NCBI RefSeq assembly: GCF_000374445.1
Contig: NZ_KB894403.1
Span: forward strand, 25,232 to 89,231
Direction: 5' to 3'
Length of the DNA: 64,000 nucleotides
Source of the DNA: Actinokineospora enzanensis DSM 44649
GTDB taxonomy: Bacteria > Actinomycetota > Actinomycetes > Mycobacteriales > Pseudonocardiaceae
Shown here one piece after another: positions 13,030 to 64,000 of this stretch. Positions within the stretch are counted from its first letter, which is position 1; each line of letters starts with the position of its first letter. Made by a program: the position numbers and the translations under genes. Below the pieces are notes generated by a model. It was not told where the DNA came from, made no database searches, and was given only the letters and a program-made list of their open reading frames with translations.

Positions 13030-13056
13030 CTTGAAGCCTCCGCTACAACGATGCGG

Positions 13057-13203: not shown

Positions 13204-13226
13204 AACCGTCGGCTGAAAGAGGGAAC

Positions 13227-16192: not shown

Positions 16193-16203
16193 GACGGCGG
16201 CGG

Positions 16204-16956: not shown

Positions 16957-16962
16957 CCGTCG

Positions 16963-18129: not shown

Positions 18130-18294
18130 TAGTGGTGCGACTCAGAACGTCGGCCGTGTATCGGCGGGTCCACGGCGTGGCTGGTGGTGTCGCCGGGACG
18201 GCCTCGTACTGGATGTACTTGGTCGTTTCGGCGGTGCCGTCAGGCACGTCGTGGGCGGGTCGAGACATGGTCGACGTTCTGGGTCGCACCACTA
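18130..18294. mobile_element. MITE copy 1 (IS630/mariner-type ends)
   Basis: A 165-bp element with terminal inverted repeats GTGGTGCGACTCAGAACGTC / matching right end with one mismatch, flanked on both sides by TA within CTAG. The same ends and subterminal sequence (ggccgtgtat, gcgggtcgagac) recur at 24851-24924. This copy carries about 90 bp more in the middle. It has no transposase; TA duplication and CTAG target choice are typical of IS630-family elements. Confidence 0.8.
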
Positions 18295-18334
18295 GCCGCT
18301 GGTTTGGCGGCACTGGGAGAGACAGGATCGCTCA

Positions 18335-30017: not shown

Positions 30018-30219
30018 CGCCCCCTCGGTGGGTGTCACCGCGCGTCGCGCGAACCGGTCGTCACAACCACTGGACCCGTGCAGCCTACCGGCGCCGCCGC
30101 CTGCTTGATCACGGAAATGAAGATCCGCTGGAGTCGGTCCGTTCACGCTATGGCTCGAAACCCGGGAGCCGCGGGTCGGACGAGCCGCAGGGGAGCGCCG
30201 TGGGCAGAGGGGAGCGGGC

Positions 30220-39623: not shown

Positions 39624-39664
39624 CGGGCCGCTCCTCGTTTCCGCGCAAGGGAAAGACGATCCCA

Positions 39665-39698
39665 GGATACCGGCTGTCGGGCGCCCGGTCCGGTATCC
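39665..39698. promoter_or_regulatory. Inverted repeat in the PatB/NRPS-operon divergent promoter
   Basis: GGATACCGG (39665-39673) and CCGGTATCC (39690-39698), perfect 9-bp arms with 16 bp between. It starts 42 nt upstream of the PatB-like start and is a candidate operator for one or both divergent units. Confidence 0.6.
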
Positions 39699-39873
39699 GG
39701 ACACCCGCTCAACCACGCGGTGGCGGTCGTTGAACATTCCTTGACGGTGCCGGGGACGGCTGACACTCTCGCCGGTGGCGGGTTCTGGGGTGGGCCGACC
39801 CACTGTCCATCATGGATTGCGCAGGCAGCGTTTCGTCGAATGATCCGAGTCCGCGACCAGTCCGAGGATGTCC

Positions 39874-41793: not shown

Positions 41794-41810
41794 TCCAGGG
41801 AGGTGCGCCG

Positions 41811-48341: not shown

Positions 48342-51300
48342 ACCAGTCGCTGGCCGAACGGCTGCGGGCCGCGCGGGCCCGGTTGGCCTCGGTCGAGTCC
48401 ACCGGGATCCCGCGACGGCCGCCGGGACCGTTCCCCGCCTCCCACGAGCAGGAGCGGATCTGGCTCATCGACCGGATCCTGGGCGGTTCCACCGAGTACA
48501 ACGTGCCGGACTGCGTCTCGGTGCACGGCACGCTCGACCTCGGTGCATTGGAGACCGCGCTGACCGGGCTCGTGGCCGCGCACGAGGTGTTGCGCACGGT
48601 GTTCGTCGAGCAGGACGGGACACCGCGGCCGATCGTGCTGGAGCCGGACCGGGTGCCGGTCACCCGGTTGACCGCGGATGGTCGGCTCGCCGCGCTCGAC
48701 CTGGCCGCGTCGGCGGCCGAGCGCCCGTTCGACCTCGGTGGCGACCTGCCGGTCCGGTGCACTGTCATCCGCTACGACGCCCAGGCGTGGTTGATCCTGC
48801 TCACGGTGCATCACATAGCGACGGACGGGCCGTCGCTCGACCTCATGTGGCGTGAGCTGTCCGCTCGATACGTGGGCTCGGCACCCAGTGTCCCCTCAGT
48901 GCAATACGGCGACTTCGCGCACTGGCAGCGGTCGACGAGCGCGAACGACCTGGAGTATTGGCTGCACCGGCTCGCGGACTGCGCAGAGCTGTCACTCGGG
49001 CCGCGTCCGGCGACCATCGGGAACGCGGGCGCGGAGCTGCGGTTCACGATTCCCGTCGAGGTCTCGCTGCGGATGCGGAGCCTCGGCACACGACACGGGG
49101 TCACGCCGTTCATGGTGTTGCTCGCCGTGTTCAAGGTGCTGCTGTCGCGGCTCAGCGGCCAGGCGGACGTCATCGTCGGGACGCCGGTGTCCGGTCGTGA
49201 CCGTCCGGAACTGGAGACGGTGCTCGGGCCGTTCGGGAACACCCTGGTCCTGCGCACCGACCTCGCGGGCGCGACCACCTTCTCGGCCGTCCTCGACCGG
49301 GTGCGGGAGACCGCGCTCGGCGCGTACGCGCACCAGGCCGCGCCGTTCGCGATGCTGGTCGAGCGGCTGCGACCGGAACGTGAGCTGGGTCGGAACCCGC
49401 TGTTCGACGTGCTGTTCGCCTTCGAGGGCACCGGGCCCGTCGCCCTGGAGCTCCCGGGTGCCGAGGTGACCAGGACGCACGTGCCGGGCAGGCGTTCGAA
49501 GTTCGACCTGAGCCTGACCCTGGACGACGACGGACGGGGAGTCCTGGCCTGGGCGACGGACCTGTTCGACCACGACTTCGCGCGGCGGTTCGTCGACCGG
49601 TACCTGTGGTTGCTCGACGTGCTGACCGCCCGGCCGGACGGCGACCTGTTCGCGCTGATCGAGGACCCGACCGAGGCCCGCGTCCTGGCGGCCTGGGGAC
49701 AGGGCGTCGAACGGGATCCCGGTGGCCGCGCGCTGCCGGAGATGATCATCGACCAGGCCGGGCGCACGCCGGACGCCGTGGCGGTCGGGTGCTCGGGCGA
49801 GGAGCTGACCTACTCCGACCTGGTCGACCGCAGTGGCCGGTTGGCGGCGCGGTTGGTCGACCTGGGTCTGCCCCGTGAGGGCGTGGTGGGCGTCTGCCTG
49901 GAGCGTTCGGTGGATCTCGTGGTCGCCCTGCTGGCGATCTGGCGCGCGGGCGGGGCGTACCTGCCGTTGGATGTCCGGCGGGCGGACTACCTGCTGGCCG
50001 ACAGCGGCGCCCGATTCGTGATCACGGACACCGAGGTGTCGGGGGATGTCCGCGTGATCGGCGTGACCGATCGGATCGCCCCGACCTCTCCGCCCGAGAA
50101 GCCGGTCCTCGACCTCGCCCAGGCCGCGTACCTGATCTACACCTCCGGTTCGACAGGTCGGCCCAAAGGCGTGGTCGTCCCGCACCGAGCCGTGCTGAAC
50201 CTGACCACCGACATGATCGAGCGCATCGGTCTGACCGCGTCGGAAGTGGTCGGTGCGATCACCACGCCCACGTTCGACATCGCCGTGCTCGAACTGCTCG
50301 TCCCGCTGGCCGCGGGTGCCCGGGTCGAGTTGGTCGGTCGCGCGGACGCCGTCGACGGGCATCTGCTCGGTGCGGCGCTCACCCGGGTCGGGGCGACGGT
50401 GGTGCAGGCCACCCCGGCGAGCTGGGCGATGCTCGTCGCGGCGGGCTGGCCGGGCGGCCGGGTGCGGGCACTGTGCGGGGGAGAGGCGCTACCGGCCGGG
50501 TTGGCGGCGGAGATCCGGTCACGCGTCGAAAACCTGTGGAACGTGTACGGGCCGACCGAGACCACGGTCTGGTCCACCGCGCAGGAGATCACGCCGGGCC
50601 ACGCCGTCGGACTGGGCCTGCCACTGGCCAACACCACGCTGTCGGTGCTCGACGACGGGCTGCGGCCGGTGCCGATCGGCGCCGTCGGCGAGCTGTGCAT
50701 CGGCGGCCTGGGCGTGGCGCGCGGATACGCGAACCGCGCTGCCCTGACCGCGCAGCGGTTCCTGCCGGACCCGGCGCGACCGGGTGCCCGGATGTACCGC
50801 ACCGGCGACCTCGTCCGATTCCACCACGACGGCACCCTGGAGTTCATCGGGCGCCGGGACCACCAGGTCAAGATCAGGGGACACCGGATCGAGCTGGGCG
50901 AGGTGGAGTCCCGCCTCGGCGAGCATCCCGCGGTCGCCCAGGCCGTGGTGATGGCCCACGGTGTGGACCTCGACCGGGCGCTCGTCGGCTACCTGGTGTG
51001 GCGGGACCGGCCGCGGGGCGGGTGGCCGGAGGTCCGGGAGTCCCTGCGCGCGAGTCTGCCCGACCACATGCTGCCCGACATCGTGGTAGAACTGGACCGG
51101 CTGCCCACCACGCCCAACGGCAAGATCGACCGACGCGCGCTGCCGCGGCCGACCCGTGCGGGCGGCGGTGTGGCACCGGCGAACGACCGGGAGCGGGAGA
51201 TCACGGCCATCTGGGCGGACGTGCTGGGGCGCGACGACATCGGGGTGGAGGACGACTTCTTCGCGCTGGGCGGGCATTCGTTGCGGGCCACCCGGGTGGT

Positions 51301-54300
51301 GGCGGCCGTGCGGAACCGGCTCGGCGTGGACGTGCCGGTGCGCGCGATCTTCGAGAACCGCACGGTGCGGGCCTTGGCCACGGCGATCGATACGGCCCCC
51401 ACGGCTACCCCGTTGCGGATCGAACGGGACGGCGGTGCCGTTCCGCTGTCGTATGCGCAACGCAGGCTCTGGTTCCTGGACCGGTTGCGGCCCGGTCGGA
51501 GCGACTACCTGGTGCCCTCGGTGGTCCGGCTGACCGGGGCGCTCGATCTCGACGCCCTGCACGCGGCGATATCGGGCGTGGTGCGGCGGCACGAGATCCT
51601 GCGCACGCGGTTCGTGTTCGACGTCGAACCGGCTCAGGTGGTCGGCGCGGTCGGACCACTGTGGACATCCGTTGTGGACGCCGGGTCGGAGTCCGATGCC
51701 CTGGACATCGTGCGGGAGCTGTGTGCTCGGCCGTTCGACCTGGAGAACGGTCCGTTGCTGCGGGCACAGGTGGTCCGGATCTCCGAGCGTGAGCACCTGC
51801 TCGCGGTGGTGTTCCACCACGCGGTGATCGACGGCTGGTCGCTTTCGGTGTTCTGGCGCGAGGTCGGCGCCGCACCGGAACACCCGAACCCCGTCCAGTA
51901 CCGCGACTTCACGCGCTGGGAGTCGACCCGCCGAGGCGAGCACGAGGCCGACCTGGAGTACTGGCGGCGGCGACTGGCGGGCAGCACGCCGACCGAGGTG
52001 CCGACCGACCACCCGCGCCCGGTCGAGTTCGACGAGTCGGCGGGACTGGTCGACTTCGTGGTGCCCGAGGACCTGGCCGGGAAGGTGAGCGGCGGACTGC
52101 TCGGCGCGACGCCGTTCGTCGTGCTGCTTGCCGGGTTCCTGGCCACGGTGGCGACGGTGTCCGGGCAGCGGGACGTCGTGGTCGGCGCGCCGGTCGCCGG
52201 TCGTGGCCGCGAGCGTCCCGAGTTCGCCGACCTGATCGGCCCACTGATCAACACGGTCGCCCTGCGCGTCGAGGTCGGTGCGGACCTGGCGGCGACGGTC
52301 GAGCGGGTGCGGGCGGCCGTGCTGGCGGCCGCCGCGCACCAGGACCTGCCGTTCGAGCACCTGGTCGACCGGCTGCGGCCGGAGCGGGACCTCGGCCGCC
52401 ATCCGCTGTTCCAGATCATGTTCGCGCTGGACGAGGACGAGGTGGCCGGGCTGCGGCTGCCCGGGGTCCGGGTGGAGGCCGTCCTGCCGGGGGTCGCGGC
52501 GGCGAAGTTCGACCTGTCGATGACGCTGCGCCGGACCGGCGACCGGCTGACCGGGACCTTGGTGTTCGCGCGCGGCCTGTACGAGGCCGACACGGCGAAC
52601 GGGCTCATCGACACCTACCTGCGGCTGTTGGCGGCCGCCGTCGAAGCGCCACACAGCCCGCTGAACTCGCTGGACCTGATGGATCCGATCACGGCCGCCG
52701 CGCTGGAACCTCGCCCGGCCCGGCTGCCCGTGGCCCGGTGTCTGCACGAACTCGTCGCGTTGAGCGCGGCGACCTGGCCCGACGCGATCGCGGTGCAGGT
52801 CGGTGCCGAGTCGATCACCTACCGGGAGCTGGTGGCTCGGTCGCGCCGACTGGCCGCGGGCCTGCGGGCCAGGGGCGCCGGGCCGGGCCGGGTCGTCGGA
52901 GTGGTGCTGCCGAGGTCGATCGACCTGGTGGTCGGACTGCTCGGTGTGTTCGAGTCGGGGTCCACCTGCCTGCCGCTGCCGCCGGGACAGCCGTCGGATC
53001 GACTCGACCTGCTGCTCGCCGACGCGGGCGCCTGCCTGGTCCTGACCGAGGTCGCCGAGTTCACCGGCACCGACACCGCCGACGTCGGCGCGGCGTTGCC
53101 CGCCGTGGCACCGGGTTCGGTTGCGTACCTGACCTACACCTCGGGTTCCACCGGGCGCCCGAAGGCGGTGCCGACGACGCACGCCGCCGCCGTGGACTAT
53201 CTCGACCACCTGGTCGGCGAGTACGGCGTCGGGGCGGACGACGTCGTGTTGCAGCTGGCGGCGGTGTCGTTCGACGCGGCGATCCGGGACATCGTGGGAC
53301 CGCTGGCCGCCGGGGCCCGGTTGGTGTTGCTGCCCGAGGACGCCGCCAAGGACCCGTACGCGATCCGACGGGAGATCGTCGCCCGGGGAGTGACGGCGTT
53401 GCTTTCGGTGGTGCCGTCCCTGTTGACCGCCCTGACCGCGGTGGAGGGCGAGCCATCCCGGTTGCGGCTCGTGTTGACCAGCGGGGAGAAGCTGACCGGG
53501 GCGCTGGCCCGGCGGGCGCGGTGCCTGGGGCCGGATGTCGTCCTGGTCAACCAGTACGGGCCGACCGAGTGCACCCTGACCACGACCTACCACCGCGTCG
53601 GCGCCGAGGACCCGGTGCCGATCGGGACGCCCCGGCCGGGTGCCGTGGTGCTGGTGCTCGGCCCGGACGGGCAGGTGCTGCCCCTGGGCGCGCTCGGCGA
53701 GCTGTACATCGGCGGACCCGGTCTGACCATGGGCTATCCCGGGCTGCCGCGGTTGACCGCGCAACGGTTCGTGCCCGATCCGTACGGGTCGCCCGGGAGC
53801 CGGTTGTACCGGACGGGCGACCTGGGCAGGCGACGGCCGGACGGGCGGCTGGAGTTCCGCGGCCGCGCCGATGACCAGGTCAAGATCCGGGGAGTCCGGG
53901 TGGAACCGGCCGAGGTCGAGGCCGTCCTGCTGGACGTGCCCGGGGTGTCCGCGGCCGCCGTGGTCGCCCACGACGTCGGCGAGACCGAACTGGTCGCGTT
54001 CCTGGTCTCCGCGGCCGACCCGGCCGCGGTGCGCGCCGAGGTCGCGCGGCGGCTGCCGGACCAACTGCGCCCCGCTCGATACGTCGACCTCGACCGGCTT
54101 CCGCTGACCGCGCACGGAAAGTTGGACCGAGCGCTGCTACGGCGCTCGCTGCCTGCTCCGACCCCGGCCGCCGTGGTGGTGCGACCACGGGATCGATCCG
54201 AGCTGGAGATCCAGGCAATCTGGCAGCGCGTGCTCGGCCGAGCACCGATCGGGGTGAACGAGAACTTCTTCGAGGTCGGTGGGCATTCCCTGCGCGCGGT

Positions 54301-55231
54301 CGAGCTCGTCGAGGCGATCCGGCGGGACCTGGGTGTGCGGGTGCCGCTGAACCTGGTGTTCCTGAACCCGACGGTCCAGGCGATGGCGGCGGCGGTCCGG
54401 GCCCGCCAGGACGGGCGACCGCGCGGTCTGGTGGTGCGGCTGGCCGCGGCGGACTCCGTCGACCCGCCGCTGTTCCTGGTGCACCCGCAGTCCGGGGAAG
54501 TGTGCTGCTACGTCGAGCTCGCGCGCCTGCTCGGTGCCTGGCGGTCGGTGTACGGGATCGAGGCGGCGGGATACAACTCGGACGAGGAACCCTCGACCGA
54601 CCTGGTGGCCATGGCGCACCGGTACGTGCGTGAGCTGCGGGACGTACGGCCCGCGGGGCCATACCTGCTGGCCGGGTGGTCGTTCGGGGGCAATGTGGCC
54701 GTGGAGATGGCGGCCCTGCTGGAGTCCCAGGGCGAGCGGGTGGACTTCGTCGGGGTGTTGGACGCGCGGGACTTCGCCAAGGACGCGACTGAGCGGTGGT
54801 ACGCCGACACCGACGAGCTCAGCCGGTTCGCGCTGGTCCAGGGAGTCGGGAAGGGACGGTTGGCGGACGCCGACGCGGACACCGTGCGCACCCTGCTGAC
54901 CGCGCACCTGACCGACCAGAACCGACTGCCGGACAGCGCCGACAGCCACACGGTCCGCCGCATGATCGACGTCTTCACCGCCGACGGCCGCGCGGCCGAC
55001 GGCTACCGGGCCACCACCGCCGCCACCGCCGACCTGTGGTTGTTCCGAACCCGCGAACGACACCCGACCCTGACCAACCCCGTGGTGGACCCGTCGAGCT
55101 GGCGTCGACGCACGCGGGGCGCGCTGCACGTGGTCGACATCCCGGGCAACCACCACGACCTTGCCGGTCCGCCCCATGTGGACGAACTGGCCCGGCTGAT
55201 GCGGCGGGCGATCGAGGGGGGATCGACATGA
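48338..55231 (+). CDS. NRPS 2: C-A(Gly)-T-C-A-T-TE
   Basis: A 2297-residue synthetase starting at GTG 48338, coupled to NRPS 1 by GTGA. Order: C3 (HHIATDGPS at 158), A3 (about 450-930), T4 (Ser981), C4 (HHAVIDGWS at 1160), A4 (about 1440-1930), T5 (Ser1984), and a terminal thioesterase with GWSFGG (Ser2115), Asp2142 and His2272/2273. A3 pocket is DILQLGVVWK, which matches the known Gly code DILQLGLIWK at eight positions. A4 pocket is DARSLSQLTK, unassigned, and its core reads FDAAIRDI in place of the usual FDxSxxE. C4 has a shorter loop after the HHxxxDG motif than C1-C3. The TE should release the peptide by hydrolysis or cyclisation. Confidence 0.93.
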   Translation: MNQSLAERLRAARARLASVESTGIPRRPPGPFPASHEQERIWLIDRILGGSTEYNVPDCVSVHGTLDLGALETALTGLVAAHEVLRTVFVEQDGTPRPIVLEPDRVPVTRLTADGRLAALDLAASAAERPFDLGGDLPVRCTVIRYDAQAWLILLTVHHIATDGPSLDLMWRELSARYVGSAPSVPSVQYGDFAHWQRSTSANDLEYWLHRLADCAELSLGPRPATIGNAGAELRFTIPVEVSLRMRSLGTRHGVTPFMVLLAVFKVLLSRLSGQADVIVGTPVSGRDRPELETVLGPFGNTLVLRTDLAGATTFSAVLDRVRETALGAYAHQAAPFAMLVERLRPERELGRNPLFDVLFAFEGTGPVALELPGAEVTRTHVPGRRSKFDLSLTLDDDGRGVLAWATDLFDHDFARRFVDRYLWLLDVLTARPDGDLFALIEDPTEARVLAAWGQGVERDPGGRALPEMIIDQAGRTPDAVAVGCSGEELTYSDLVDRSGRLAARLVDLGLPREGVVGVCLERSVDLVVALLAIWRAGGAYLPLDVRRADYLLADSGARFVITDTEVSGDVRVIGVTDRIAPTSPPEKPVLDLAQAAYLIYTSGSTGRPKGVVVPHRAVLNLTTDMIERIGLTASEVVGAITTPTFDIAVLELLVPLAAGARVELVGRADAVDGHLLGAALTRVGATVVQATPASWAMLVAAGWPGGRVRALCGGEALPAGLAAEIRSRVENLWNVYGPTETTVWSTAQEITPGHAVGLGLPLANTTLSVLDDGLRPVPIGAVGELCIGGLGVARGYANRAALTAQRFLPDPARPGARMYRTGDLVRFHHDGTLEFIGRRDHQVKIRGHRIELGEVESRLGEHPAVAQAVVMAHGVDLDRALVGYLVWRDRPRGGWPEVRESLRASLPDHMLPDIVVELDRLPTTPNGKIDRRALPRPTRAGGGVAPANDREREITAIWADVLGRDDIGVEDDFFALGGHSLRATRVVAAVRNRLGVDVPVRAIFENRTVRALATAIDTAPTATPLRIERDGGAVPLSYAQRRLWFLDRLRPGRSDYLVPSVVRLTGALDLDALHAAISGVVRRHEILRTRFVFDVEPAQVVGAVGPLWTSVVDAGSESDALDIVRELCARPFDLENGPLLRAQVVRISEREHLLAVVFHHAVIDGWSLSVFWREVGAAPEHPNPVQYRDFTRWESTRRGEHEADLEYWRRRLAGSTPTEVPTDHPRPVEFDESAGLVDFVVPEDLAGKVSGGLLGATPFVVLLAGFLATVATVSGQRDVVVGAPVAGRGRERPEFADLIGPLINTVALRVEVGADLAATVERVRAAVLAAAAHQDLPFEHLVDRLRPERDLGRHPLFQIMFALDEDEVAGLRLPGVRVEAVLPGVAAAKFDLSMTLRRTGDRLTGTLVFARGLYEADTANGLIDTYLRLLAAAVEAPHSPLNSLDLMDPITAAALEPRPARLPVARCLHELVALSAATWPDAIAVQVGAESITYRELVARSRRLAAGLRARGAGPGRVVGVVLPRSIDLVVGLLGVFESGSTCLPLPPGQPSDRLDLLLADAGACLVLTEVAEFTGTDTADVGAALPAVAPGSVAYLTYTSGSTGRPKAVPTTHAAAVDYLDHLVGEYGVGADDVVLQLAAVSFDAAIRDIVGPLAAGARLVLLPEDAAKDPYAIRREIVARGVTALLSVVPSLLTALTAVEGEPSRLRLVLTSGEKLTGALARRARCLGPDVVLVNQYGPTECTLTTTYHRVGAEDPVPIGTPRPGAVVLVLGPDGQVLPLGALGELYIGGPGLTMGYPGLPRLTAQRFVPDPYGSPGSRLYRTGDLGRRRPDGRLEFRGRADDQVKIRGVRVEPAEVEAVLLDVPGVSAAAVVAHDVGETELVAFLVSAADPAAVRAEVARRLPDQLRPARYVDLDRLPLTAHGKLDRALLRRSLPAPTPAAVVVRPRDRSELEIQAIWQRVLGRAPIGVNENFFEVGGHSLRAVELVEAIRRDLGVRVPLNLVFLNPTVQAMAAAVRARQDGRPRGLVVRLAAADSVDPPLFLVHPQSGEVCCYVELARLLGAWRSVYGIEAAGYNSDEEPSTDLVAMAHRYVRELRDVRPAGPYLLAGWSFGGNVAVEMAALLESQGERVDFVGVLDARDFAKDATERWYADTDELSRFALVQGVGKGRLADADADTVRTLLTAHLTDQNRLPDSADSHTVRRMIDVFTADGRAADGYRATTAATADLWLFRTRERHPTLTNPVVDPSSWRRRTRGALHVVDIPGNHHDLAGPPHVDELARLMRRAIEGGST

Positions 55232-55899
55232 CCAGGATCGGCATCGTCGGCGGTGTCGGCCCGATCGCCGCAGCCCATTTCTACGAGCGTCTGCTCCGAT
55301 TGAGCGGGGCCAGCACCGACGAGACCTACCCGGCCGTCGTCCTGGTGGCCGAGCGGGTGCCCAGCCGCGTCGCGCACCTGGTCGGCACCGGCCCCAGCCC
55401 GCTGCCGACCCTGATCGACGCGGCCCGACGTCTCGAACGCGCGGGCGCCGGGGTCGTGGCCATCCCCTCGGTGACCACCCACGCCTACCGCGACGACATC
55501 GCCGCGGCCGTGCGCGTCCCCGTCTGCGACCTGCTGTCCGACACCGGCGCCGCGCTGGATCGACTGGGCTTCCGCCGCCCGCTGATCCTCGCCACCGAGG
55601 CGACGGCCTGCCTGCGCCTGCTCGAACCCCACCTCACAAACGGCACCGAGCCCGAGTACCCGGACCCGGCCGGGCAACGCGTGATCGACGGTCTCATCGA
55701 CGCCGTCAAACGCCACTCGCCCGCCGAGTCGCTCCGCGCGGATCTGACCGAGTGGCTGGTGCGACGGCTCGGTGCGGAACCGGACTGCGTCCTGCTGGGC
55801 TGCACCGAGCTCTCGGTCATCGCCCCGGGGGTCGATCTGCCGGTGCCGGTACTGGACGTCGCGGATGTGTTGGCCAGGTCGGTGTTGGACGTGTTGTAG
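55228..55899 (+). CDS. Asp/Glu racemase-family protein with one catalytic Cys replaced
   Basis: A 223-residue member of the aspartate/glutamate racemase superfamily (IGIVGGVGPIAAAHFYERLL). The second catalytic Cys is present (C192 in LLGCTELS), but where the first stands in PCNTAH this protein has IPSVTTH, with Ser81. Classical racemases need both Cys as the two acid/base residues; single-Cys relatives include arylmalonate decarboxylase. It may therefore be a decarboxylase, a one-sided isomerase or an inactive homologue. ATG 55228 overlaps the NRPS 2 stop by 4 nt. In context it could supply or alter a D-amino acid or a malonate-like unit. Confidence 0.85.
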   Translation: MTRIGIVGGVGPIAAAHFYERLLRLSGASTDETYPAVVLVAERVPSRVAHLVGTGPSPLPTLIDAARRLERAGAGVVAIPSVTTHAYRDDIAAAVRVPVCDLLSDTGAALDRLGFRRPLILATEATACLRLLEPHLTNGTEPEYPDPAGQRVIDGLIDAVKRHSPAESLRADLTEWLVRRLGAEPDCVLLGCTELSVIAPGVDLPVPVLDVADVLARSVLDVL

Positions 55900-55915: not shown

Positions 55916-56122
55916 ATGGAGGACGAGGACGGCCGGGTGTGGACGGTCGTGGTGAACGACGAGGAGCAGTACTCGATCTGGCCCGCCGGGCGCGAGGTGC
56001 CGGATGGGTGGCACGCCGTCGGGGTGGAGGGGACGAAGAGCGAATGCCTGGACCACATCGAGCGGGTGTGGGTCGACATGCGGCCCAAGAGCCTGCGCGA
56101 GGCCCTGCGCGCACAGGCATGA
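55916..56122 (+). CDS. mbtH: MbtH-like NRPS accessory protein
   Basis: A 68-residue MbtH protein with all hallmark residues: NDEEQYSIWPAGREVPDGWH, then GTKSECLDHIERVWVDMRP. These proteins bind adenylation domains and are often needed for their solubility and activity. It starts at ATG 55916 behind AGGAGAGGAG and overlaps the next gene by 4 nt. It should serve A1-A4 of the two synthetases. Confidence 0.97.
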   Translation: MEDEDGRVWTVVVNDEEQYSIWPAGREVPDGWHAVGVEGTKSECLDHIERVWVDMRPKSLREALRAQA

Positions 56123-57201
56123 GGTCCGTCGGGCGCGAGCCCTTGACCCGGTTCGTCGCCGAGGTGTGCATACGGATGGGGGCCGACACCGAGGTGGCGG
56201 ACGAGGTCGCCACCCATCTCGTGCGGGCGGATCTGTCCGGGCACGGCTCGCACGGGGTGCAGCGGCTGCGGCAGTACGTGGACGAGGCGGACCGGGGTGA
56301 TCTCGTGCCGTCGGCCCGGCCCGAGGTCGTGCGCGGCCGGGGCGCGGCCACGCTGGTCGACGCGGGCCGTGGCTTCGGGCACTACTCGACCCGGTTCGCG
56401 TGCGAGGCGGCGTCGCGGGCGGCGGAGCGGTACGGGGTGGCGACCGTGGTGGTCCGGCGGTCCGGGCACACCGGCAGGCTGGGGCACTACTGCGAGCGGA
56501 TCGCCGAGGCGGGCCTGGTGGGCTTGCTGACCGTCGGGGCGGCGGGCCCGTCCGTGGGGGCGATGGTGCTGGGCGGCACGGCGCAGCGGTTCCTCGCGGC
56601 CAACCCGTGGGCCATCGGCGTCCCCGCGACCCCGGAGGCCGTGGTGGTCGACGTGTCGTCGGCGATGCTGGCCGAGGGGAAGGTCGTCGCGGCGGCGATG
56701 CGCTCGACGCCACTCCCGGAGGGGTGCGTGGTCGACGCGGCGCGGCGGCCGAGTCGGGATCCGGTGGACTACTTCGACGGCGGCGGCCTGTTGCCGCTGG
56801 GCGGGTTGGTCGCCGGGCACAAGGGCTTCGGCCTCGGGCTGGCGGCCGCGCTGCTCGGCGGCCTGGCCATGATCGACGACGACCGGCCGACGCTCGCCGG
56901 GTCGCAGCGGCCGCCGGGGTCGACGGGCGAGGGCGAGATCGCAGGCGTGTGCCTGGTGGTGATCGACCCGGATGTGTTCGGCGGCCGGGAACCCTACGCG
57001 GCGGCGGTGTCCCGCACGACGGACCACATCGTCCGCGCGGAAGCCGACGGCGCGACGGTCACCGTCCCCGGTGTACCGGAAAGCAGGCACCGGGCGGCCA
57101 ACCGCGCCCGGGTACCGGTGGTCGACCGGGTGCTGGCGGACCTGGTGGAGATCGGCGAGCGGTACGGGGTCGGGACGGACCTGGACGGGGAACCGGAGTA
57201 G
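56119..57201 (+). CDS. Ldh2-family malate/lactate dehydrogenase-like oxidoreductase
   Basis: A 360-residue protein of the Ldh_2 family (malate/L-lactate, ureidoglycolate and piperideine-carboxylate oxidoreductases). SGHGSHGVQRLRQYV holds the substrate-binding Arg and catalytic His region, VVVRRSGHTGRLGHYCERIA and NPWAIGVP the NAD(P) site, and AGHKGFGLGLAAALLGG the family C-terminal motif. It may reduce a keto acid to a hydroxy acid or a cyclic imine to an amino acid such as pipecolate or proline analogues. ATG 56119 overlaps the MbtH stop. The exact substrate is not readable; the hydrophobic A1 pocket or an unassigned A domain may take its product. Confidence 0.87.
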   Translation: MRSVGREPLTRFVAEVCIRMGADTEVADEVATHLVRADLSGHGSHGVQRLRQYVDEADRGDLVPSARPEVVRGRGAATLVDAGRGFGHYSTRFACEAASRAAERYGVATVVVRRSGHTGRLGHYCERIAEAGLVGLLTVGAAGPSVGAMVLGGTAQRFLAANPWAIGVPATPEAVVVDVSSAMLAEGKVVAAAMRSTPLPEGCVVDAARRPSRDPVDYFDGGGLLPLGGLVAGHKGFGLGLAAALLGGLAMIDDDRPTLAGSQRPPGSTGEGEIAGVCLVVIDPDVFGGREPYAAAVSRTTDHIVRAEADGATVTVPGVPESRHRAANRARVPVVDRVLADLVEIGERYGVGTDLDGEPE

Positions 57202-57275
57202 GCGATCGACCTCGCGGTCGTCGGCAGGCGGTACGGGGTCGGATGGAACGGGACGAAGGGAACGGGGTAGGCGAT
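57151..57275 (+). repeat. Diverged 56-bp direct duplication at the gene junction
   Basis: Copies at 57151-57206 and 57220-57275 align without gaps at roughly two positions in three and share the identical blocks ggtacggggt and ggcgat. The first is the 3' end and stop of the Ldh2-like gene; the second lies between the genes and runs into the start of the hydroxylase gene. Confidence 0.6.
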
Positions 57276-58038
57276 GCCGGCTTGGGTGGCGGAGAGCAGG
57301 GCGTACCTGGAGCGGTGGATCGACGAACAGGGGGTCGATCGCGGCGCGTTGGCACGTGTTCTGGACGGAATGGACCTCAGCGCGACCCGGGAGCCGAGCA
57401 CGGAGCGATCGGTGCAACGACCCGAGGTGCTGGTCCCGGGACTGACCGCGAGTCCCTGGTGGGACAGCGCGAGCTTCCCCTGGTTGTCCGATCTTGAGGA
57501 GGCGTTCCCCCGGATCCTGGCGGAGTTCACCGAGGTCGGCGGCCTCTCCGCCGACAACGCGGTGAGTCATCCGAACACCGGCAACCTCGCCCGGTCGGGC
57601 ACCTGGAGCGCGTACTACTTCTACCTGCTCGGCCAGGAGTACTCCGACCACCTGGCCGCCTGCCCGGACACGGTCACGGCATTGTCCACTCTGGACGGTG
57701 TGCGCGAGTCGGGGATGTGCTACTTCTCGATCATGTCGCCGGGCGCGCACGTGGCCCCGCACTGCGGGTTCGTCAACACCCGGTTGCGCTGCCACCTGGG
57801 GCTGGTGGTCCCCGAGGACGGTTGCCGGATGCGGGTCGCCGACGAGACCAGGACGTGGGCGGACGGGCGGGCGTTCGTGTTCGACGACTCGTTCGAGCAC
57901 GAGGTGTGGAACGACAGCGGCGCCGGCCGGGCCGTGCTGCTGTTCGACGTCTGGCACCCGGAGCTGACCGAGATCGAGAAACGCGCCCTCGCGCACATGA
58001 TGACCGTGTGGAAGACCTTCCTGTACCGGGACAACTGA
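57274..58038 (+). CDS. Aspartyl/asparaginyl beta-hydroxylase-family dioxygenase
   Basis: A 254-residue protein whose C-terminal half is a PF05118-type 2-oxoglutarate/Fe(II) hydroxylase: VAPHCGFVNTRLRCHLGLVV (first Fe-binding His), then FVFDDSFEHEVWNDSG (second His) and AVLLFDVWHPEL (2-oxoglutarate-binding Arg lies just before). The N-terminal 90 residues are helical and fit other bacterial members. It is expected to hydroxylate an unactivated carbon, in this cluster probably the beta carbon of an amino acid, free or carrier-bound. ATG 57274 has a weak GGGG upstream. It is 2 nt from the LanB-like gene. Confidence 0.9.
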   Translation: MPAWVAESRAYLERWIDEQGVDRGALARVLDGMDLSATREPSTERSVQRPEVLVPGLTASPWWDSASFPWLSDLEEAFPRILAEFTEVGGLSADNAVSHPNTGNLARSGTWSAYYFYLLGQEYSDHLAACPDTVTALSTLDGVRESGMCYFSIMSPGAHVAPHCGFVNTRLRCHLGLVVPEDGCRMRVADETRTWADGRAFVFDDSFEHEVWNDSGAGRAVLLFDVWHPELTEIEKRALAHMMTVWKTFLYRDN

Positions 58039-58040: not shown

Positions 58041-60230
58041 GTGACCACCGAACCGTGGCAGTGCGCGGGCTGGGCCATGGTGAAGTCCACCGGCTTCGGC
58101 TTCGAGCTGCTCGACGACCTGCGGGTGCGCACCGGGACCGACGAGGAGCGGATCGCCGAGTGCGTCCGCAGGCTGGCGCGCACCTGCGCCGACCCGCGCT
58201 TCCTGGAGGCGGTGCTGCTCTCCAGCCGCACCGCCCACGACCAGCTGCGCGGCGGCCTGGGTGCGGGGTGGCGCTCGAAGGACCGGCGCAAGGTGCTGGT
58301 CGCCGCGATGTACCTGCAACGGTTCTGCGCCAAGAACGAGAGCACCAGCTTCTTCGGCCCCGTCTACTGGGCCCCGGTGGGCGGGACCGAGGACGTCCGA
58401 TTCGACCCGGGCGCGGGCGGCCCGCCGACCCTGGAGACCCAGTGGACGCACTGGGCGGCCCAGGCGGTGGCCGACGCGATGAGCGCCGACCCGGAGGTCC
58501 TGCCCCATATCAGGCCACGGATTCCGGCCAACCTCGTGCGGCGCGGTGACCGGCACCTGTCCGTCCGCTACGGGGACTGGCCCATCGAGGTGGTCGAGCT
58601 CGAAGGCCCGTGCACCGACCTGGGACGAAGGATCCTGGCGCACTGCGACGGGGTCGCCACCCCGGCCGGGATCGCGGAGTCGGTCGGCGCCGAACTGTCC
58701 ACAGTGGTCGAATCACTCGCCGAGCTGGCCCGTCGCGGCCTGGTGACCTGTCACGTCCAGGTGCCGTACGGCCTGCTCGACCCGCTGCGTCCGCTGATCG
58801 ACTTCGCGGCGGAACTCCCCGACGACACCTGGTCCACCGTCCTGACCGACCTGGACGCACACCGCCACGCCGTGCATGCCGCACATGCCACCCCCGACCG
58901 ACCGGCCGTACTCGACGCCGCGGACGCCGCCTTCACCGCCCTGACGGGGAGCCCGGCACAGCGCAACGCGGGCCGCCACTACGCGGATCGCACCATCCTC
59001 ATCGAGGACGGGCACTTCGCCTGGACCGACCTGACACTCGGGGGACCGGTGCACGGATATCTCCGAGACGAGGCTCCGATCGTCCTGGACCTGCTGTTCG
59101 AGCTGTCCCTGGAACGCCGCCGCCGCAGGGTGCGCGCCGTCACGGCCTGGTTCACCGACACCTTCGGCACCGCCGTGGTCCCGCTCGACCAGGTGATAGC
59201 CGCCGCCGACCTCCGCGAACAGCTGCGCGCCCTGGACGACACCTGCCGCGCCGACGGCCCCTCCGCGATCACCGATCTGCTCCTCGCCGACACCGACCGC
59301 GCGCGGGTCGAGGTGGACCTGGACCGGGCCAGGCACCACGCGGCCCGGATCGACTTCGACACCTGGTCCGTCGCGGGTGCCGACCTCTTCATCGACGCCC
59401 GTGGCGTGGCCGACCTCGACGCCGACGACTTCCGGGTGGTCGTCGGCGAGGTCCACGGTCTGCACGACCAACTGCTCCAGGGCCTCTGGCCCGCCCTGCA
59501 CCCCTGCCGCGCCGACTTCGAGGCCGAGATCGGCAAGCTCGTCGCGGGCCTCGCCGACGGCCGGATCTGCGACCCGGTGCTCGCCCACGGCCGCAAGACT
59601 CTCGCCCGTGCCGAGGTGCTCCCCGAGGTCGAGTTCCTCGGCCGCAGCCCGCGTGGCCCCGGCGAGGTCTGCCGGGCCGCCGACCTCGTCGTCCGGCTCG
59701 ACGGCGGCCTGCTCGTCCTGGAGAGCCCAACCCTGGGCCGGGTCCACCTGACCAGGCCCCCGACCTACTCCTGGGACGCCGAGGTCGAGTCGGTCTTCAG
59801 CCCGTTCTGCGGTGCCCGGCTGATCGGCGCCGAGGACATGTTCCGCACCCTCGACGGCCACGCGCACCTGCCGCGCCTCACGATCGGCCGCACGGTCGTG
59901 CACCGGGAGACCTGGCGCGTGCCACCGGAACCGCGGCCATGGACCAGCCTGTCGCCACGCAACCAGGCCGAGGTCCGTGCCCTGCGCGAGCGCCTCGGCC
60001 TGCCCGACCAGGTCTACGCCAGGTTCCAGGGCGAGCCGAAGCCGGTCTTCGTCGACTTCGACATCCCGGTCCTGGTCGACCTGTTCGCCCGGCACCATGC
60101 GCGCGCGACCGGCCCGACGGTGATCACCGAGATGCTGCCCGGCCCGACCGGTCTCTGGCTGCGCGACCACGACGGCAGGCACACCGGCGAGCTGCGGTTC
60201 GGCTACTACCGGCGACAGGGGCGCAGGTGA
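58041..60230 (+). CDS. LanB/PEARL-like protein (lantibiotic dehydratase N-domain family)
   Basis: A 729-residue protein starting at GTG 58041. LYLQRFCAKNESTSFFGPVYW-type sequence near residues 90-115 (RFCAKNESTSFFGP) and the long alpha/beta body (RNAGRHYADRTILIEDGHFA; ADLVVRLDGGLLVLESPTL; NQAEVRALRERLGLPDQVYA) match the LanB glutamylation-domain family. Full LanB enzymes are about 1000 residues; this one lacks a separate elimination domain, like split LanBs and PEARLs, which use aminoacyl-tRNA to add an amino acid to a peptide. No lanthipeptide cyclase or precursor peptide is near. In an NRPS operon it may load or extend a carrier-bound residue, or activate Ser/Thr for dehydration. Function is inferred. 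Confidence 0.78.
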   Translation: MTTEPWQCAGWAMVKSTGFGFELLDDLRVRTGTDEERIAECVRRLARTCADPRFLEAVLLSSRTAHDQLRGGLGAGWRSKDRRKVLVAAMYLQRFCAKNESTSFFGPVYWAPVGGTEDVRFDPGAGGPPTLETQWTHWAAQAVADAMSADPEVLPHIRPRIPANLVRRGDRHLSVRYGDWPIEVVELEGPCTDLGRRILAHCDGVATPAGIAESVGAELSTVVESLAELARRGLVTCHVQVPYGLLDPLRPLIDFAAELPDDTWSTVLTDLDAHRHAVHAAHATPDRPAVLDAADAAFTALTGSPAQRNAGRHYADRTILIEDGHFAWTDLTLGGPVHGYLRDEAPIVLDLLFELSLERRRRRVRAVTAWFTDTFGTAVVPLDQVIAAADLREQLRALDDTCRADGPSAITDLLLADTDRARVEVDLDRARHHAARIDFDTWSVAGADLFIDARGVADLDADDFRVVVGEVHGLHDQLLQGLWPALHPCRADFEAEIGKLVAGLADGRICDPVLAHGRKTLARAEVLPEVEFLGRSPRGPGEVCRAADLVVRLDGGLLVLESPTLGRVHLTRPPTYSWDAEVESVFSPFCGARLIGAEDMFRTLDGHAHLPRLTIGRTVVHRETWRVPPEPRPWTSLSPRNQAEVRALRERLGLPDQVYARFQGEPKPVFVDFDIPVLVDLFARHHARATGPTVITEMLPGPTGLWLRDHDGRHTGELRFGYYRRQGRR

Positions 60231-61272: not shown

Positions 61273-62289
61273 ATGGACACCCCCACCTTCACGACGGTGA
61301 GCGGACGACAGGTGGCCGAGATCCTGCGCGGCAGGCACGCCGAGGTCGTCGGGCTCGTCCGCGACAGCTACCTCGCGCACGGCGAGGGCCGCACGGTCAA
61401 CCCGCCCAGCGCCTTCCTTCGCTTCCCGGACCGGCCGCGCGACCGGGTGATCGCCCTGCCCGCCGCGCTGGAGACCGTCAACGGGGTCAAGTGGATCTCC
61501 AGCAGGCCCGGCAACCTCGACCTCGGCCTGCCCCGCGCCGCCGCCGTGCTGGTCCTCAACGACCCGGTCACCGGCTTCCCCTACGCCTGCCTGGAGGGCG
61601 CGGTGATCAGCGCGTCGAGGACCGCCGCCTCCGCCGCGCTGGCCGCCCGGGTGCTCACCGAGCAACGCGGGACACGTCCCACCCGGCTCGGGATCATCGG
61701 CGCCGGGTTGATCGCGCGGTACATCCACGAGTACCTGGACGCCACCGGCTGGCGGTTCGACCGGATCGCCGTGCACGACCTGCACGAGCAGTACGCGCAC
61801 CGGTTCGCGGAGTATCTCGACGCCGACGTCTCGGTGCACACCGACCCCGGTGCGCTGATCGAGTCCTCGGACCTCGTGGTGTTCGCGACCACCGCCACCA
61901 CCCCGCACATCGGTGAGCAGGCCTGGTTCCGGCACCACCCGCTGGTCCTGCACGTGTCCCTGCGCGACCTCACCCCGGAGCTGATCCTGGACTGTCACAA
62001 CGTGCTCGACGACATCGACCACTGCCTGGCGGCAGACACCTCGGTGCATCTGGCGGAGCAACACTGCGGCGATCGGCGGTTCGTGCACGGCTCGATGTAC
62101 GACGCGCTCACCACCGGGCTCGCCGTGCCCCGGGACCGGACCGTCGTGTTCTCCCCGTTCGGCATGGGTGTCCTCGACCTGGCCGTCGGTCGCTTCGTGC
62201 ACCGGGAGGGGACCAGGCTCGGCCTGCTCGACCCGGTGCCCGACTTCTTCAGCACGCCCGCGATGTCCTGGACGGGGGCCCGGCCATGA
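61273..62289 (+). CDS. SbnB-like 2,3-diaminopropionate synthase (ornithine cyclodeaminase family)
   Basis: A 338-residue protein of the ornithine cyclodeaminase/mu-crystallin fold. VNPPSAFLRFP and NGVKWISSRPGN form the substrate pocket, RLGIIGAGLIARYIHEYL the NAD-binding Rossmann loop, and DDIDHCLAADTSVHLAE the family C-terminal segment. SbnB oxidises the SbnA product and releases 2,3-diaminopropionate and 2-oxoglutarate; length (336 in SbnB) agrees. ATG 61273 has AGGAGG 5 nt upstream and is preferred to GTG 61243. It overlaps the thioesterase gene by 4 nt. The released 2-oxoglutarate could also feed the neighbouring hydroxylase. Confidence 0.87.
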   Translation: MDTPTFTTVSGRQVAEILRGRHAEVVGLVRDSYLAHGEGRTVNPPSAFLRFPDRPRDRVIALPAALETVNGVKWISSRPGNLDLGLPRAAAVLVLNDPVTGFPYACLEGAVISASRTAASAALAARVLTEQRGTRPTRLGIIGAGLIARYIHEYLDATGWRFDRIAVHDLHEQYAHRFAEYLDADVSVHTDPGALIESSDLVVFATTATTPHIGEQAWFRHHPLVLHVSLRDLTPELILDCHNVLDDIDHCLAADTSVHLAEQHCGDRRFVHGSMYDALTTGLAVPRDRTVVFSPFGMGVLDLAVGRFVHREGTRLGLLDPVPDFFSTPAMSWTGARP

Positions 62290-62984
62290 CCCCGACCCTG
62301 GTGTGCGTGCCATTCGCGGGCGCGGGCGCGTCGTTCTTCCGACCGTGGCGGGCTCTCGCACCCGACCTGGAGATCCTCGCCGCGCAGTTGCCCGGCCGGG
62401 AACGGCGGATCGACGACCCGCCGTACCGGGACGTGGCGGCCGCCGCCGACGGCCTGTACGCCGATCTGTTCGGTGGACTGGGCGGCGGGCAGCCGGTGGT
62501 GTTGTTCGGGCACAGCCTCGGTGCCGTGATCGCCTACGAGCTCGCGCACCGGCTGGCGGCCAAGGCCGAGGTCACCGTGGCCGGACTGCTGGTCAGCGGC
62601 TCGCCGGGCCCGTGGACGCAACGCGAGCGGCGCGCGACCGGCCTGCCGGACGACGAGTTCCTCGTCCGCGTCGCGCAGTTCGCCGGGTACACCCACGAGG
62701 CACTGGCCTACCCCGAGATGCGGGAGCTGATCCTGCCGGTGCTCCGCGCGGACGTGGAGATGCACGAGGCATACCGGTCGGAGAACCTCACCGCGCTGAC
62801 CGTGCCGATCCACTCGATCCGGGGCGAGCGGGACGGCCTGGTCACCGCGGCGGAGGCAGGCGAATGGTCCGAGGCCACCACCGGCCCGTTCGACTACGTC
62901 GAGGTCGACGGCGGCCACATGTACCTGACCGAGAACGCGCGGCCGATCCTCCGCCTGGCCGCGACGTTGGCCGGGAAGGGGTGA
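62286..62984 (+). CDS. Type II thioesterase
   Basis: A 232-residue alpha/beta hydrolase of the external thioesterase family: VCVPFAGAGASFFRPWRALA, PGRERRIDDPPY, the nucleophile in VVLFGHSLGAVIAYE, the acid region RGERDGLV and the catalytic His in GGHMYL. Such enzymes free mis-loaded or blocked carrier domains. In this cluster editing could matter more than usual because T2 has no cognate adenylation domain. The ATG overlaps the SbnB-like stop by 4 nt. Confidence 0.95.
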   Translation: MTPTLVCVPFAGAGASFFRPWRALAPDLEILAAQLPGRERRIDDPPYRDVAAAADGLYADLFGGLGGGQPVVLFGHSLGAVIAYELAHRLAAKAEVTVAGLLVSGSPGPWTQRERRATGLPDDEFLVRVAQFAGYTHEALAYPEMRELILPVLRADVEMHEAYRSENLTALTVPIHSIRGERDGLVTAAEAGEWSEATTGPFDYVEVDGGHMYLTENARPILRLAATLAGKG

Positions 62985-62987: not shown

Positions 62988-63812
62988 GTGCGTCTGGCAG
63001 GCAAGACCGCGGTGGTCACCGGGGCGGCCCGGGGGATCGGCCGGGCCTGTGCGGCGGCGTTCGCCGAGGAGGGCGCGGACCTCGTGCTGGTGGACATCGC
63101 GGCCGATCTGCTCGGTGTGCCCTACCCGCTGGGCTCGGCGAGCCAGCTCGCGCACACCGCCGACCTGTGCCGTGCGCACGGGGTCGCCGTGCACACCGAG
63201 GTGGTCGACATCCGGGACATGGCCGCCGTGCGGGCCGTGGCCGACGCGGCGGAGGAGCGGTTCGGTCGGATCGACGTGCTGCTGAACAACGCGGGCATCG
63301 CCGCCCCGGCGGGCAGGCCGGTGCACGAGACGAGTGAGGCGGACTGGGCGCTGATGCTCGACGTGAACCTCTCCGGCGCCTGGCGGATGACCAACGCGGT
63401 CGCCGGGCGGATGAGCGCGCGCCGCGCGGGCAGCGTGATCAACGTGTCGTCCACGGCGGGGCTCGTGGGATACCGGCACTTCGCGGGCTACGTCGCGGCC
63501 AAGCACGGCCTGATCGGCCTGACCAAGGCGGCGGCCCTGGACTACGGGCCGTCCCGGGTCCGGGTCAACGCCATCTGCCCCGGTTCGGTGCGGGACACGC
63601 CGTGGGTGGAGGGTCGGATGCTGGCCGAGATCGCGCGGGCGCTGGACGTGCCGGTCGCCGAGCACGAGTCGACCTTCGTGCTGGCCCAGCCGATGAACGC
63701 CCTGGTCGAACCGGAGGACGTCGCCGCAGCCGCGCTCTGGCTCGCCGCCGACGAGTCCGCGCGGGTGACCGGGTCCGTGGTCACCGTCGACGGCGGGTTC
63801 ACGGTCCGATGA
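62988..63812 (+). CDS. Short-chain dehydrogenase/reductase
   Basis: A 274-residue classical SDR. TGAARGIGRA is the nucleotide loop, VDIRDM contacts the cofactor, NNAGIAAP and the catalytic SS...YVAAK follow, and the C-terminus is VTGSVVTVDGGF. An insertion of about 15 residues after strand 2 (DLLGVPYPLGSASQLAHTAD) is like that in mycofactocin-type NAD-retaining SDRs, but no mycofactocin genes are in the window. Likely oxidises or reduces a hydroxyl/keto group of a building block, perhaps the alcohol made by the AspH-like enzyme. GTG 62988 is 3 nt after the thioesterase stop. Confidence 0.92.
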   Translation: MRLAGKTAVVTGAARGIGRACAAAFAEEGADLVLVDIAADLLGVPYPLGSASQLAHTADLCRAHGVAVHTEVVDIRDMAAVRAVADAAEERFGRIDVLLNNAGIAAPAGRPVHETSEADWALMLDVNLSGAWRMTNAVAGRMSARRAGSVINVSSTAGLVGYRHFAGYVAAKHGLIGLTKAAALDYGPSRVRVNAICPGSVRDTPWVEGRMLAEIARALDVPVAEHESTFVLAQPMNALVEPEDVAAAALWLAADESARVTGSVVTVDGGFTVR

Positions 63813-63832: not shown

Positions 63833-64000
63833 GTGGATCACTGCCACGCAGTGCGCGTCCGGCTCACCGAGCCGGTCGATCTCGCCGGGATCACGAGAGT
63901 GTGGCGGGAACCGGTCCCGGCCGCCGCCGACGAGCCACTCGCGATCCGGCGCAGGCAGGCCGAGTTGCACCGGCCGGTGACGGCGGATCCCGGTGTGCGG
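63833..64000 (+). CDS. Start of a further cluster gene (truncated by window end)
   Basis: An open frame from GTG 63833 (GGGAGG 6 nt upstream) runs off the window; an in-frame ATG at 63809 overlaps the SDR stop and is an alternative. The 56 visible residues (AVRVRLTEPVDLAGITRVWR; IRRRQAELHRPVTADPGVR) look like part of a condensation-domain or related acyl-transfer protein, where an RxxxLxxPVTxDPG-type segment precedes the first strand pair, but too little is present to be sure. It shows that the operon continues. Confidence 0.6.
   Translation, partial: MDHCHAVRVRLTEPVDLAGITRVWREPVPAAADEPLAIRRRQAELHRPVTADPGVR

What the first reader, a model, noticed from the sequence alone, without database searches (positions are those of the whole stretch)
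58041..60230. LanB/PEARL-like protein inside an NRPS operon
LanB and PEARL proteins use aminoacyl-tRNA to modify ribosomal peptides. Here one is translationally coupled to diaminopropionate synthesis genes and follows two NRPSs, with no precursor peptide or cyclase. Together with the A-less C-T unit this suggests tRNA-dependent aminoacylation of a carrier-bound or released peptide, or glutamyl-activated dehydration of a Ser/Thr residue. I know of no described assembly line that joins these parts in this way.
Basis: partly seen in the sequence, partly recalled or inferred. Interest (0 to 1): 0.85.

Follow-up and report, generated by a model that had tools for sequence, protein, structure and literature searches.

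The report
tRNA-using peptide ligase in NRPS cluster
An enzyme normally labelled "lantibiotic dehydratase" sits inside a bacterial peptide-assembly gene cluster, where it most likely adds an amino acid taken from a charged tRNA to the peptide; one enzyme of this kind has already been described, but this one lacks the trick that explained that case.

Summary
Window 58041-60230 encodes a 729-aa stand-alone Lant_dehydr_N protein (94 bits), overlapping the SbnA/SbnB (diaminopropionate) genes and following two NRPSs, with no elimination domain and no room for a carrier-peptide gene in the operon. By residue pattern it is PEARL-type (ATP- and aminoacyl-tRNA-using ligase), not a dehydratase. "No described assembly line" is wrong: SnaE (PMC11212132) is a PEARL in an NRPS-PKS cluster, needed there for adding Thr; that paper counts about 2000 NRPS/PKS clusters with such genes. 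The A-less C-T unit is not evidence for tRNA loading: that module has an intact A domain in Streptomyces rubellomurinus, a relic in Embleya hyalina, none here. What is unusual: the protein's clade (17 distinct proteins in the tree; context readable for 6) lies downstream of a C-A-T-C-A-T-TE synthetase in 6 of 6, 6 bases to 4 kb away, with diaminopropionate genes in the genome, and 0 of 27 C domains carry the ureido signature that explains SnaE. Three of the six are only 35% identical to the window protein, and an equally distant protein outside the clade (G779) has no NRPS nearby. Which carboxylate is extended, and with what, is inferred, not shown.

The parts
58041..60230 (+). PEARL-type (Lant_dehydr_N only) protein, 729 aa
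60227..61246 (+). SbnA-like PALP enzyme (2,3-diaminopropionate synthesis)
   Evidence: PF00291 163.6 bits; TIGR03945 best match, below cut-off
61273..62289 (+). SbnB (2,3-diaminopropionate synthesis)
   Evidence: TIGR03944 372.8 bits, above cut-off 326.9
41793..48341 (+). NRPS1: A-T-C-T-C-A-T (start approximate)
43578..45176 (+). A-less C1-T2 unit of NRPS1; A domain intact in S. rubellomurinus, relic in Embleya
48338..55231 (+). NRPS2: C-A-T-C-A-T-TE
55228..55899 (+). Amino acid racemase-family protein (TIGR00035 above cut-off), first catalytic-Cys motif changed to Ser
55916..56122 (+). MbtH-like protein
56119..57201 (+). Ldh_2-family dehydrogenase
57274..58038 (+). Aspartyl/asparaginyl beta-hydroxylase family protein
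62286..62984 (+). Type II thioesterase-like protein
62988..63812 (+). Short-chain dehydrogenase
63833..64000 (+). NRPS3, continues outside the window to about position 66304: N-terminal stretch without Pfam match - A (Thr-like code) - T; candidate in-trans loader of T2
39868..41793 (+). Radical SAM protein with B12-binding-like part, upstream end of the operon

Best explanation
The protein is a PEARL-type ligase recruited to a non-ribosomal peptide pathway. Inferred mechanism: it phosphorylates a free carboxylate of the peptide made by NRPS1/NRPS2 with ATP, lets the amino group of an aminoacyl-tRNA attack the acyl phosphate, and the tRNA is then hydrolysed off, leaving the peptide longer by one amino acid. 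The most likely acceptor is the carboxylate freed by the TE of NRPS2 or an Asp-type side chain of the peptide; which one, and which amino acid is added, are not shown. The A-less module is a separate matter: its A domain has been lost and its carrier is probably loaded in trans by NRPS3. Shown here: gene, family, active-site pattern, conserved neighbourhood, A-domain decay series. Inferred: substrate, donor, timing.
For: Lant_dehydr_N over nearly the full model, no PF14028 in the protein or on its contig. Invariant in 26 of 26 rows of A4: Y91, R94, D448, H472, R622, K667, E717, R719. These fit by motif and spacing the PEARL residues reported for BhaB7/TglB (Tyr205-x2-Arg208 for tRNA CCA; Asp558, Glu575-x-His577, Lys763, Glu813-x-Arg815 for ATP; PMC11962472 sections 10-11, PMC12945691 section 9). 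Controls from the same genome: two full LanBs (L001, L002, each with PF14028) and a third PF04738 protein without PF14028 (L004). None keeps the set: E-x-R is E-x-A, E-x-V, E-x-I; R622 is P and K667 is R in 3 of 3. Profiles A2 and A3 hit 22 of the ORFs given, none of these three, at E<=1e-3. Quick tree: clade of 18 rows (17 distinct proteins, P0013 being the S. rubellomurinus one), support 100. Context was readable for 6 of the 17 (window, Embleya, S. rubellomurinus, G407, G509, G532): in 6 of 6 a C-A-T-C-A-T-TE synthetase lies upstream, 6 bases (three) to 2.8-4.0 kb (three) away, and Dap genes are present (Embleya's SbnB is on another contig). Precedent in an NRPS-PKS cluster: SnaE (PMC11212132).
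Against: No substrate, product or activity is known. SnaE has a carboxylate freed by a ureido-forming C domain; 0 of 27 C domains in the six clusters have EHHxxHDG, so the reason for a separate ligase is missing here. Even for SnaE, ATP and tRNA use is the authors' proposal; gene deletion is what was shown in the parts I read. The residue matched to BhaB7 Arg34/TglB Arg10 is Lys15 in 13 of 13 rows of A2, while G407/G509/G532, the LanB controls and the other PEARL-like rows with a letter there have Arg. Some discriminating residues are not exclusive: L004 aligns D and H at D448/H472, L002 and L004 align D at D672, and R94 is also Arg in L001 and L002; among PEARL-like rows E470 is R in P0029 and L011+13213, H472 is Q in G779. 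BhaB7, TglB and SnaE sequences were not in hand, so the residue match rests on spacing and invariance. G407/G509/G532 are only 35% identical to the window protein, no more than G779 (34%), which the tree places outside the clade. No structure model could be made.
Confidence: 0.68

Rival explanations
1. The enzyme has kept the ATP-grasp-like activation but not the tRNA step: it joins a carboxylate of the peptide to an internal amine (for example the side-chain amine of diaminopropionate), giving a ring.
For: Diaminopropionate genes go with it in 6 of 6 genomes read; Arg34/Arg10 of PEARLs is Lys15 in the window's near clade.
Against: The two residues matched to tRNA CCA contacts (Y91, R94) are invariant in 26 of 26 rows, hard to explain if tRNA were no longer used; Dap may simply be a building block.
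Confidence: 0.13
2. The enzyme loads the A-less carrier T2, or esterifies a carrier-bound peptide, with an aminoacyl group from tRNA.
For: T2 has no A domain in the window; LanB N-domains transfer glutamyl groups to hydroxyls (PMC11212132 Introduction).
Against: The gene is present in S. rubellomurinus, where module 2 has an intact A domain; the A domain is a relic in Embleya. NRPS3 (Thr-like A-T) is found with the A-less or relic module (window, Embleya) and not in the S. rubellomurinus stretch, though an A-like protein without T (38971-40656, minus strand) lies 7 kb from that cluster. PEARL residues serve amide, not thioester, formation.
Confidence: 0.06
3. Glutamyl-tRNA-dependent dehydration of a Ser/Thr-type residue of the peptide, as in class I lanthipeptides.
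For: Family membership in PF04738; a Thr-like A domain is in the cluster.
Against: No PF14028 elimination domain in the protein or on its contig; ATP-site set kept, whereas same-genome LanBs lack it as a set.
Confidence: 0.05
4. The gene is a non-functional or unrelated passenger.
For: No activity known.
Against: Overlapping genes, shared neighbourhood in 6 clusters from 4 genera (window and G407 one genus, G509 and G532 another, Embleya, Streptomyces), the five relatives being 35-61% identical to the window protein, invariant active-site residues.
Confidence: 0.03

Closest known systems
SnaE of the sna (threopeptin) cluster, Stackebrandtia nassauensis (PMC11212132)
   Same: Protein annotated as lantibiotic dehydratase in an NRPS(-PKS) cluster without a recognisable carrier peptide, MbtH and thioesterase genes nearby; proposed ATP- and aminoacyl-tRNA-dependent extension of a non-ribosomal peptide.
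   Different: There a ureido-forming C domain leaves a free carboxylate; here none of 27 C domains in six clusters has the signature, the window's two NRPSs have five modules and end in TE, and Dap, racemase-family, Ldh_2 and hydroxylase genes are added. SnaE's sequence could not be retrieved, so relatedness is untested.
Carrier-peptide PEARLs (TglB, BhaB7, AmmB2; PMC11962472, PMC12945691)
   Same: Motifs matched to the tRNA CCA and ATP sites.
   Different: No carrier-peptide gene found; single copy in an NRPS operon; Lys at the place matched to Arg10/Arg34.
Class I lanthipeptide dehydratases (own-genome L001, L002; PDB 5ehk and 6ec7, which I recall as MibB and TbtB)
   Same: Shared N-domain: profile A1 finds 6ec7 (E 2.5e-10) and 5ehk (E 1.6e-7), both named lantibiotic dehydratase.
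   Different: No elimination domain; the ATP-site set is absent from the own-genome dehydratases.
Syringomycin-type in-trans loading (SyrB1/SyrC/SyrE; recalled)
   Same: A-less C-T module with a separate Thr-type A-T protein in the cluster.
   Different: No SyrC-type transferase was looked for by a dedicated search; this analogy concerns the A-less unit, not the PEARL.

Membership tests
PEARL (peptide aminoacyl-tRNA ligase) | Lant_dehydr_N domain | tested here: met
   94.3 bits, model 1-630/649
PEARL (peptide aminoacyl-tRNA ligase) | ATP-phosphorylation residues (Asp558, Glu575, His577, Lys763, Glu813, Arg815 of BhaB7) | tested here: met
   D448, E470, H472, K667, E717, R719 by motif and spacing; absent as a set in 3 of 3 own-genome controls, though L004 aligns D and H at two of the places. 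BhaB7 itself was not aligned.
PEARL (peptide aminoacyl-tRNA ligase) | tRNA CCA contacts Tyr205/Arg208 | tested here: met
   Y91, R94 invariant in 26 of 26 rows; R94 is shared with own-genome LanBs L001 and L002 and does not discriminate
PEARL (peptide aminoacyl-tRNA ligase) | Arg10 (TglB)/Arg34 (BhaB7) | tested here: inconclusive
   Lys15 in 13 of 13 rows of A2, Arg in G407/G509/G532
PEARL (peptide aminoacyl-tRNA ligase) | No co-occurring elimination domain PF14028 | tested here: met
   two matches in the genome, on contigs C61 and C47
PEARL (peptide aminoacyl-tRNA ligase) | ATP- and aminoacyl-tRNA-dependent amide formation | not testable with these tools
   needs in vitro assay
SnaE-type NRPS PEARL with chain reversal | Ureido-forming C domain EHHxxHDG in the cluster | tested here: not met
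   0 of 27 C domains in six clusters; NRPS3's unassigned N-terminal stretch not counted
SnaE-type NRPS PEARL with chain reversal | Common descent with SnaE | not tested
Class I lanthipeptide dehydratase | Elimination domain PF14028 fused or nearby | tested here: not met
Class I lanthipeptide dehydratase | Precursor peptide gene in the cluster | tested here: not met
   no room in the operon; no small ORF conserved at E<=1e-4 but MbtH and ORFs whose coordinates lie inside long genes

The most novel reading that the evidence does not exclude
A mixed NRPS/tRNA assembly line without chain reversal: a five-module NRPS releases a Dap-containing peptide, and a dedicated PEARL clade then extends its C-terminal (or an Asp side-chain) carboxylate with an amino acid from an aminoacyl-tRNA, so the last residue is chosen by tRNA rather than by an adenylation domain.
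Probability: 0.4. Interest if true: 0.7.

Novelty: new variant of a known kind. Interest (0 to 1): 0.5.

Why it matters
It suggests that PEARLs in NRPS clusters are not confined to ureido chain reversal, the only explained case my searches found. The six clusters give a small, testable family; the S. rubellomurinus version is compact (about 23.5 kb from SbnA to MbtH, joined coordinates 8407-31946; ends judged by content). If right, tRNA-chosen residues are a more general way to go on building where the thioester assembly line stops, and some of the about 2000 'lantibiotic dehydratase' annotations in NRPS/PKS clusters (count from PMC11212132) need rereading.

Tried and rejected
Dehydratase reading: rejected on missing PF14028 and residue pattern. 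tRNA loading of the A-less T2: rejected because the PEARL is present where module 2 has an intact A domain. Ureido chain reversal as in SnaE: signature absent, 0 of 27. Carrier peptide: none found. Single-sequence search of the PDB gave nothing relevant; the profile search did. Profile-profile comparison with the two own-genome LanBs gave 94.5% probability, but the second profile has two sequences. NCBIfam on the protein gave one sub-threshold match. SnaE was sought with a 17-row profile and not among the hits; that search and one search scored only the ~8000 candidates sharing most words. Literature: in the listings the NRPS-PEARL studies I could recognise were the SnaE paper and its preprint; searches returned no paper. 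The library lacks most subscription journals. The S. rubellomurinus search (listing only) showed no report of this cluster in titles or abstract starts; PMC12723261 was searched for four LanB/PEARL terms, 0 passages. Papers: PMC11212132 abstract, sections 4, 9 and part 1 of 2 of section 5; PMC11962472 abstract, sections 10 and 11; PMC12945691 passages and section 9; the rest listings only. Some hand-aligned A-domain codes differ from the script's where its motif rule failed (NRPS1 A1; S. rubellomurinus A1). Code meanings (Thr, Gly, Asp/Asn, Ser) are recalled, not tested.

Rows dropped: alignment A4 left out P0002 (the window itself), P0010, P0025, P0028, P0031 (short or poorly covering) and P0032. 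The tree left out P0002, P0010, P0025, P0028, P0031, P0032, L011+19513, L006-0 and CAN_L004 (partial or poorly aligned), so only two LanB controls are in it; it is the quick tree, the careful one did not finish.

Full report
What is there. The frame 58041-60230 is open for 729 aa and matches Lant_dehydr_N over nearly its whole length (94.3 bits, E 6.9e-27). It lies in a tight operon: radical SAM protein, NRPS1 (A-T-C-T-C-A-T), NRPS2 (C-A-T-C-A-T-TE), racemase-family protein, MbtH, Ldh_2-family dehydrogenase, Asp/Asn hydroxylase-family protein, the LanB-like protein, SbnA, SbnB, thioesterase, SDR, and NRPS3 (unassigned stretch-A-T), which ends outside the window. Gaps are -4 to 72 bases. The finding's coordinates and coupling are right.

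PEARL or dehydratase. The published PEARL model places tRNA CCA contacts at Tyr205 and Arg208 and ATP/Mg contacts at Asp558, Glu575, His577, Lys763, Glu813 and Arg815 of BhaB7 (PMC11962472, sections 10 and 11; PMC12945691, section 9). In the window protein Y91-x2-R94, D448, E470-x-H472, K667 and E717-x-R719 repeat these motifs with nearly the same spacing (K667 to E717 is 50 residues, as Lys763 to Glu813; D448 to E470 is 22 against 17). All but E470 are invariant in 26 aligned homologues. The genome has two full LanBs with both halves and a third PF04738 protein without PF14028; none of the three keeps the set, though L004 aligns D and H at D448/H472 and R94 is Arg in L001 and L002 as well. 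The clade profiles do not find these three at E<=1e-3 but do find the tandem LanB-like arrays of Streptomyces xanthophaeus and G466. I therefore call it PEARL-type. One departure: the place of the essential Arg10/Arg34 holds Lys in 13 of 13 rows of A2, and Arg in G407, G509 and G532.

Relatives. The clade is rare. Matches: 2 of 396 phylum genomes at E<=1e-40, the window's own and the distant G216; 8 of 390 family genomes at E<=1e-60, of which 4, own included, score above 650 bits; 3 of 397 in the order and 2 of 394 in the class at E<=1e-90, own included in each. Named relatives are Embleya hyalina (61%) and S. rubellomurinus (47%), plus distant S. xanthophaeus. The tree clade has 17 distinct proteins; context was readable for six: window, Embleya, S. 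rubellomurinus, G407, G509, G532 (the last three 35% identical to the window protein; G509 and G532 are one genus and nearly the same). In 6 of 6 a C-A-T-C-A-T-TE synthetase lies upstream of the PEARL gene: 6 bases away in G407, G509, G532, and 2.8 to 4.0 kb away in the window, S. rubellomurinus and Embleya with accessory genes between. All six also have a racemase-family gene, MbtH and SbnA; SbnB is in the cluster in five and on another contig in Embleya. The hydroxylase and Ldh_2 genes are in three of six. Outside the clade, G779 (34% identical), G610, G216, G846 and G1250 show no C or T domain in the stretch read (0 of 5; G610 has one AMP-binding hit at the far end); G491 has NRPS/PKS modules, G466 an array of five PEARL-like genes and two AMP-binding hits. 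So among the proteins read, the link to this TE synthetase is seen in this clade only.

The A-less unit. NRPS1 of S. rubellomurinus is A-T-C-A-T-C-A-T with an intact second A domain (code DLTKVGEVG). In Embleya the second A domain is in frame but has TSDPAGALVG for the TSGSTGxPK motif and has lost the stretch holding the substrate pocket; in the window only a linker remains between C1 and T2. NRPS3, whose A domain has a Thr-like code (DFWSVGMVH here, DFWNVGMVH in Embleya; meaning recalled), is in the window and Embleya clusters and not in the S. rubellomurinus stretch, where the nearest extra A-like protein, without T, is 7 kb off on the other strand. In-trans loading by NRPS3 is the simplest reading; it is an inference from two clusters against one.

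Peptide. The third module's code (DDVQISQID here) recurs in near form (DDVQLSTID) as a stand-alone A-T beside SbnA/SbnB in G407, G509 and G532, so it is probably the Dap module. The fourth looks like Gly in the window, Embleya and S. rubellomurinus (DILQLGV-W); the last begins DARS in six of six. Substrate names are recalled and untested.

Mechanism. In sna, SnaA joins two Arg through a ureido group, leaving a carboxylate that the NRPS cannot extend; products with the added Thr vanish when SnaE is inactivated, and ATP/tRNA use is proposed (PMC11212132; sections 4, 5 part 1 and 9 read). The ureido signature EHHxxHDG is in 0 of 27 C domains of the six clusters (the opposite-strand NRPS of G407/G509/G532 is counted as theirs). 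So the carboxylate here should be the TE-released C terminus or an acidic side chain. A PEARL makes an amide from an acyl phosphate and an aminoacyl-tRNA, so it is not suited to loading a carrier thioester.

Novelty. NRPS clusters with PEARL-type genes are known; this is a distinct clade and context without the explanation given for the known case. Whether SnaE falls in or near this clade is untested. No structure model could be obtained.

Noticed in passing
55228-55899: Racemase-family protein (TIGR00035 112.2 bits, above cut-off 93.1): the first catalytic Cys motif reads IPSVTTH (Ser) in the window and IPSATTH in Embleya and S. rubellomurinus, while G407/G509/G532 keep CNT and GCTE. Its best-scoring NCBIfam model is cysteate racemase CuyB, below cut-off; the Ldh_2 neighbour's second-best is L-sulfolactate dehydrogenase, below cut-off.
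   Followed up: partly
L031:4361-5242 (G779), L018:12346-12900 (G216): Distant PEARL-like genes lie near a PEP-mutase-family gene and near a TPP-enzyme fragment that by eye resembles phosphonopyruvate decarboxylase, hinting at PEARL-like enzymes in phosphonate pathways.
   Followed up: partly
G000 contigs C61, C47, C24: The same genome holds two full class I LanBs and a further PEARL-like protein (L006) elsewhere.
   Followed up: no
L007:6604-18998, outside the window: Beyond a Ser/Thr kinase a second cluster begins: A-T, C-T-C, KS-T-reductase, 3HCDH, acyl-CoA dehydrogenase, HAD-like (FkbH-type by recall).
   Followed up: no
38457-41793: A PatB-type PLP enzyme and a B12-type radical SAM protein (both below NCBIfam cut-offs) are also side by side in the Embleya cluster; no hit to either in the stretches of the other four clusters.
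   Followed up: no
S. rubellomurinus C1 of NRPS1 (joined coordinates 10360-18759): Its first C domain reads HHIATDE instead of HHxxxDG.
   Followed up: no
28224-30707 and 25028-28723: Two large BTAD-type regulator frames on the minus strand and a LuxR-type regulator frame (30220-30840) lie upstream of the cluster; each of the outer frames overlaps 28224-30707, so gene starts there are uncertain.
   Followed up: no
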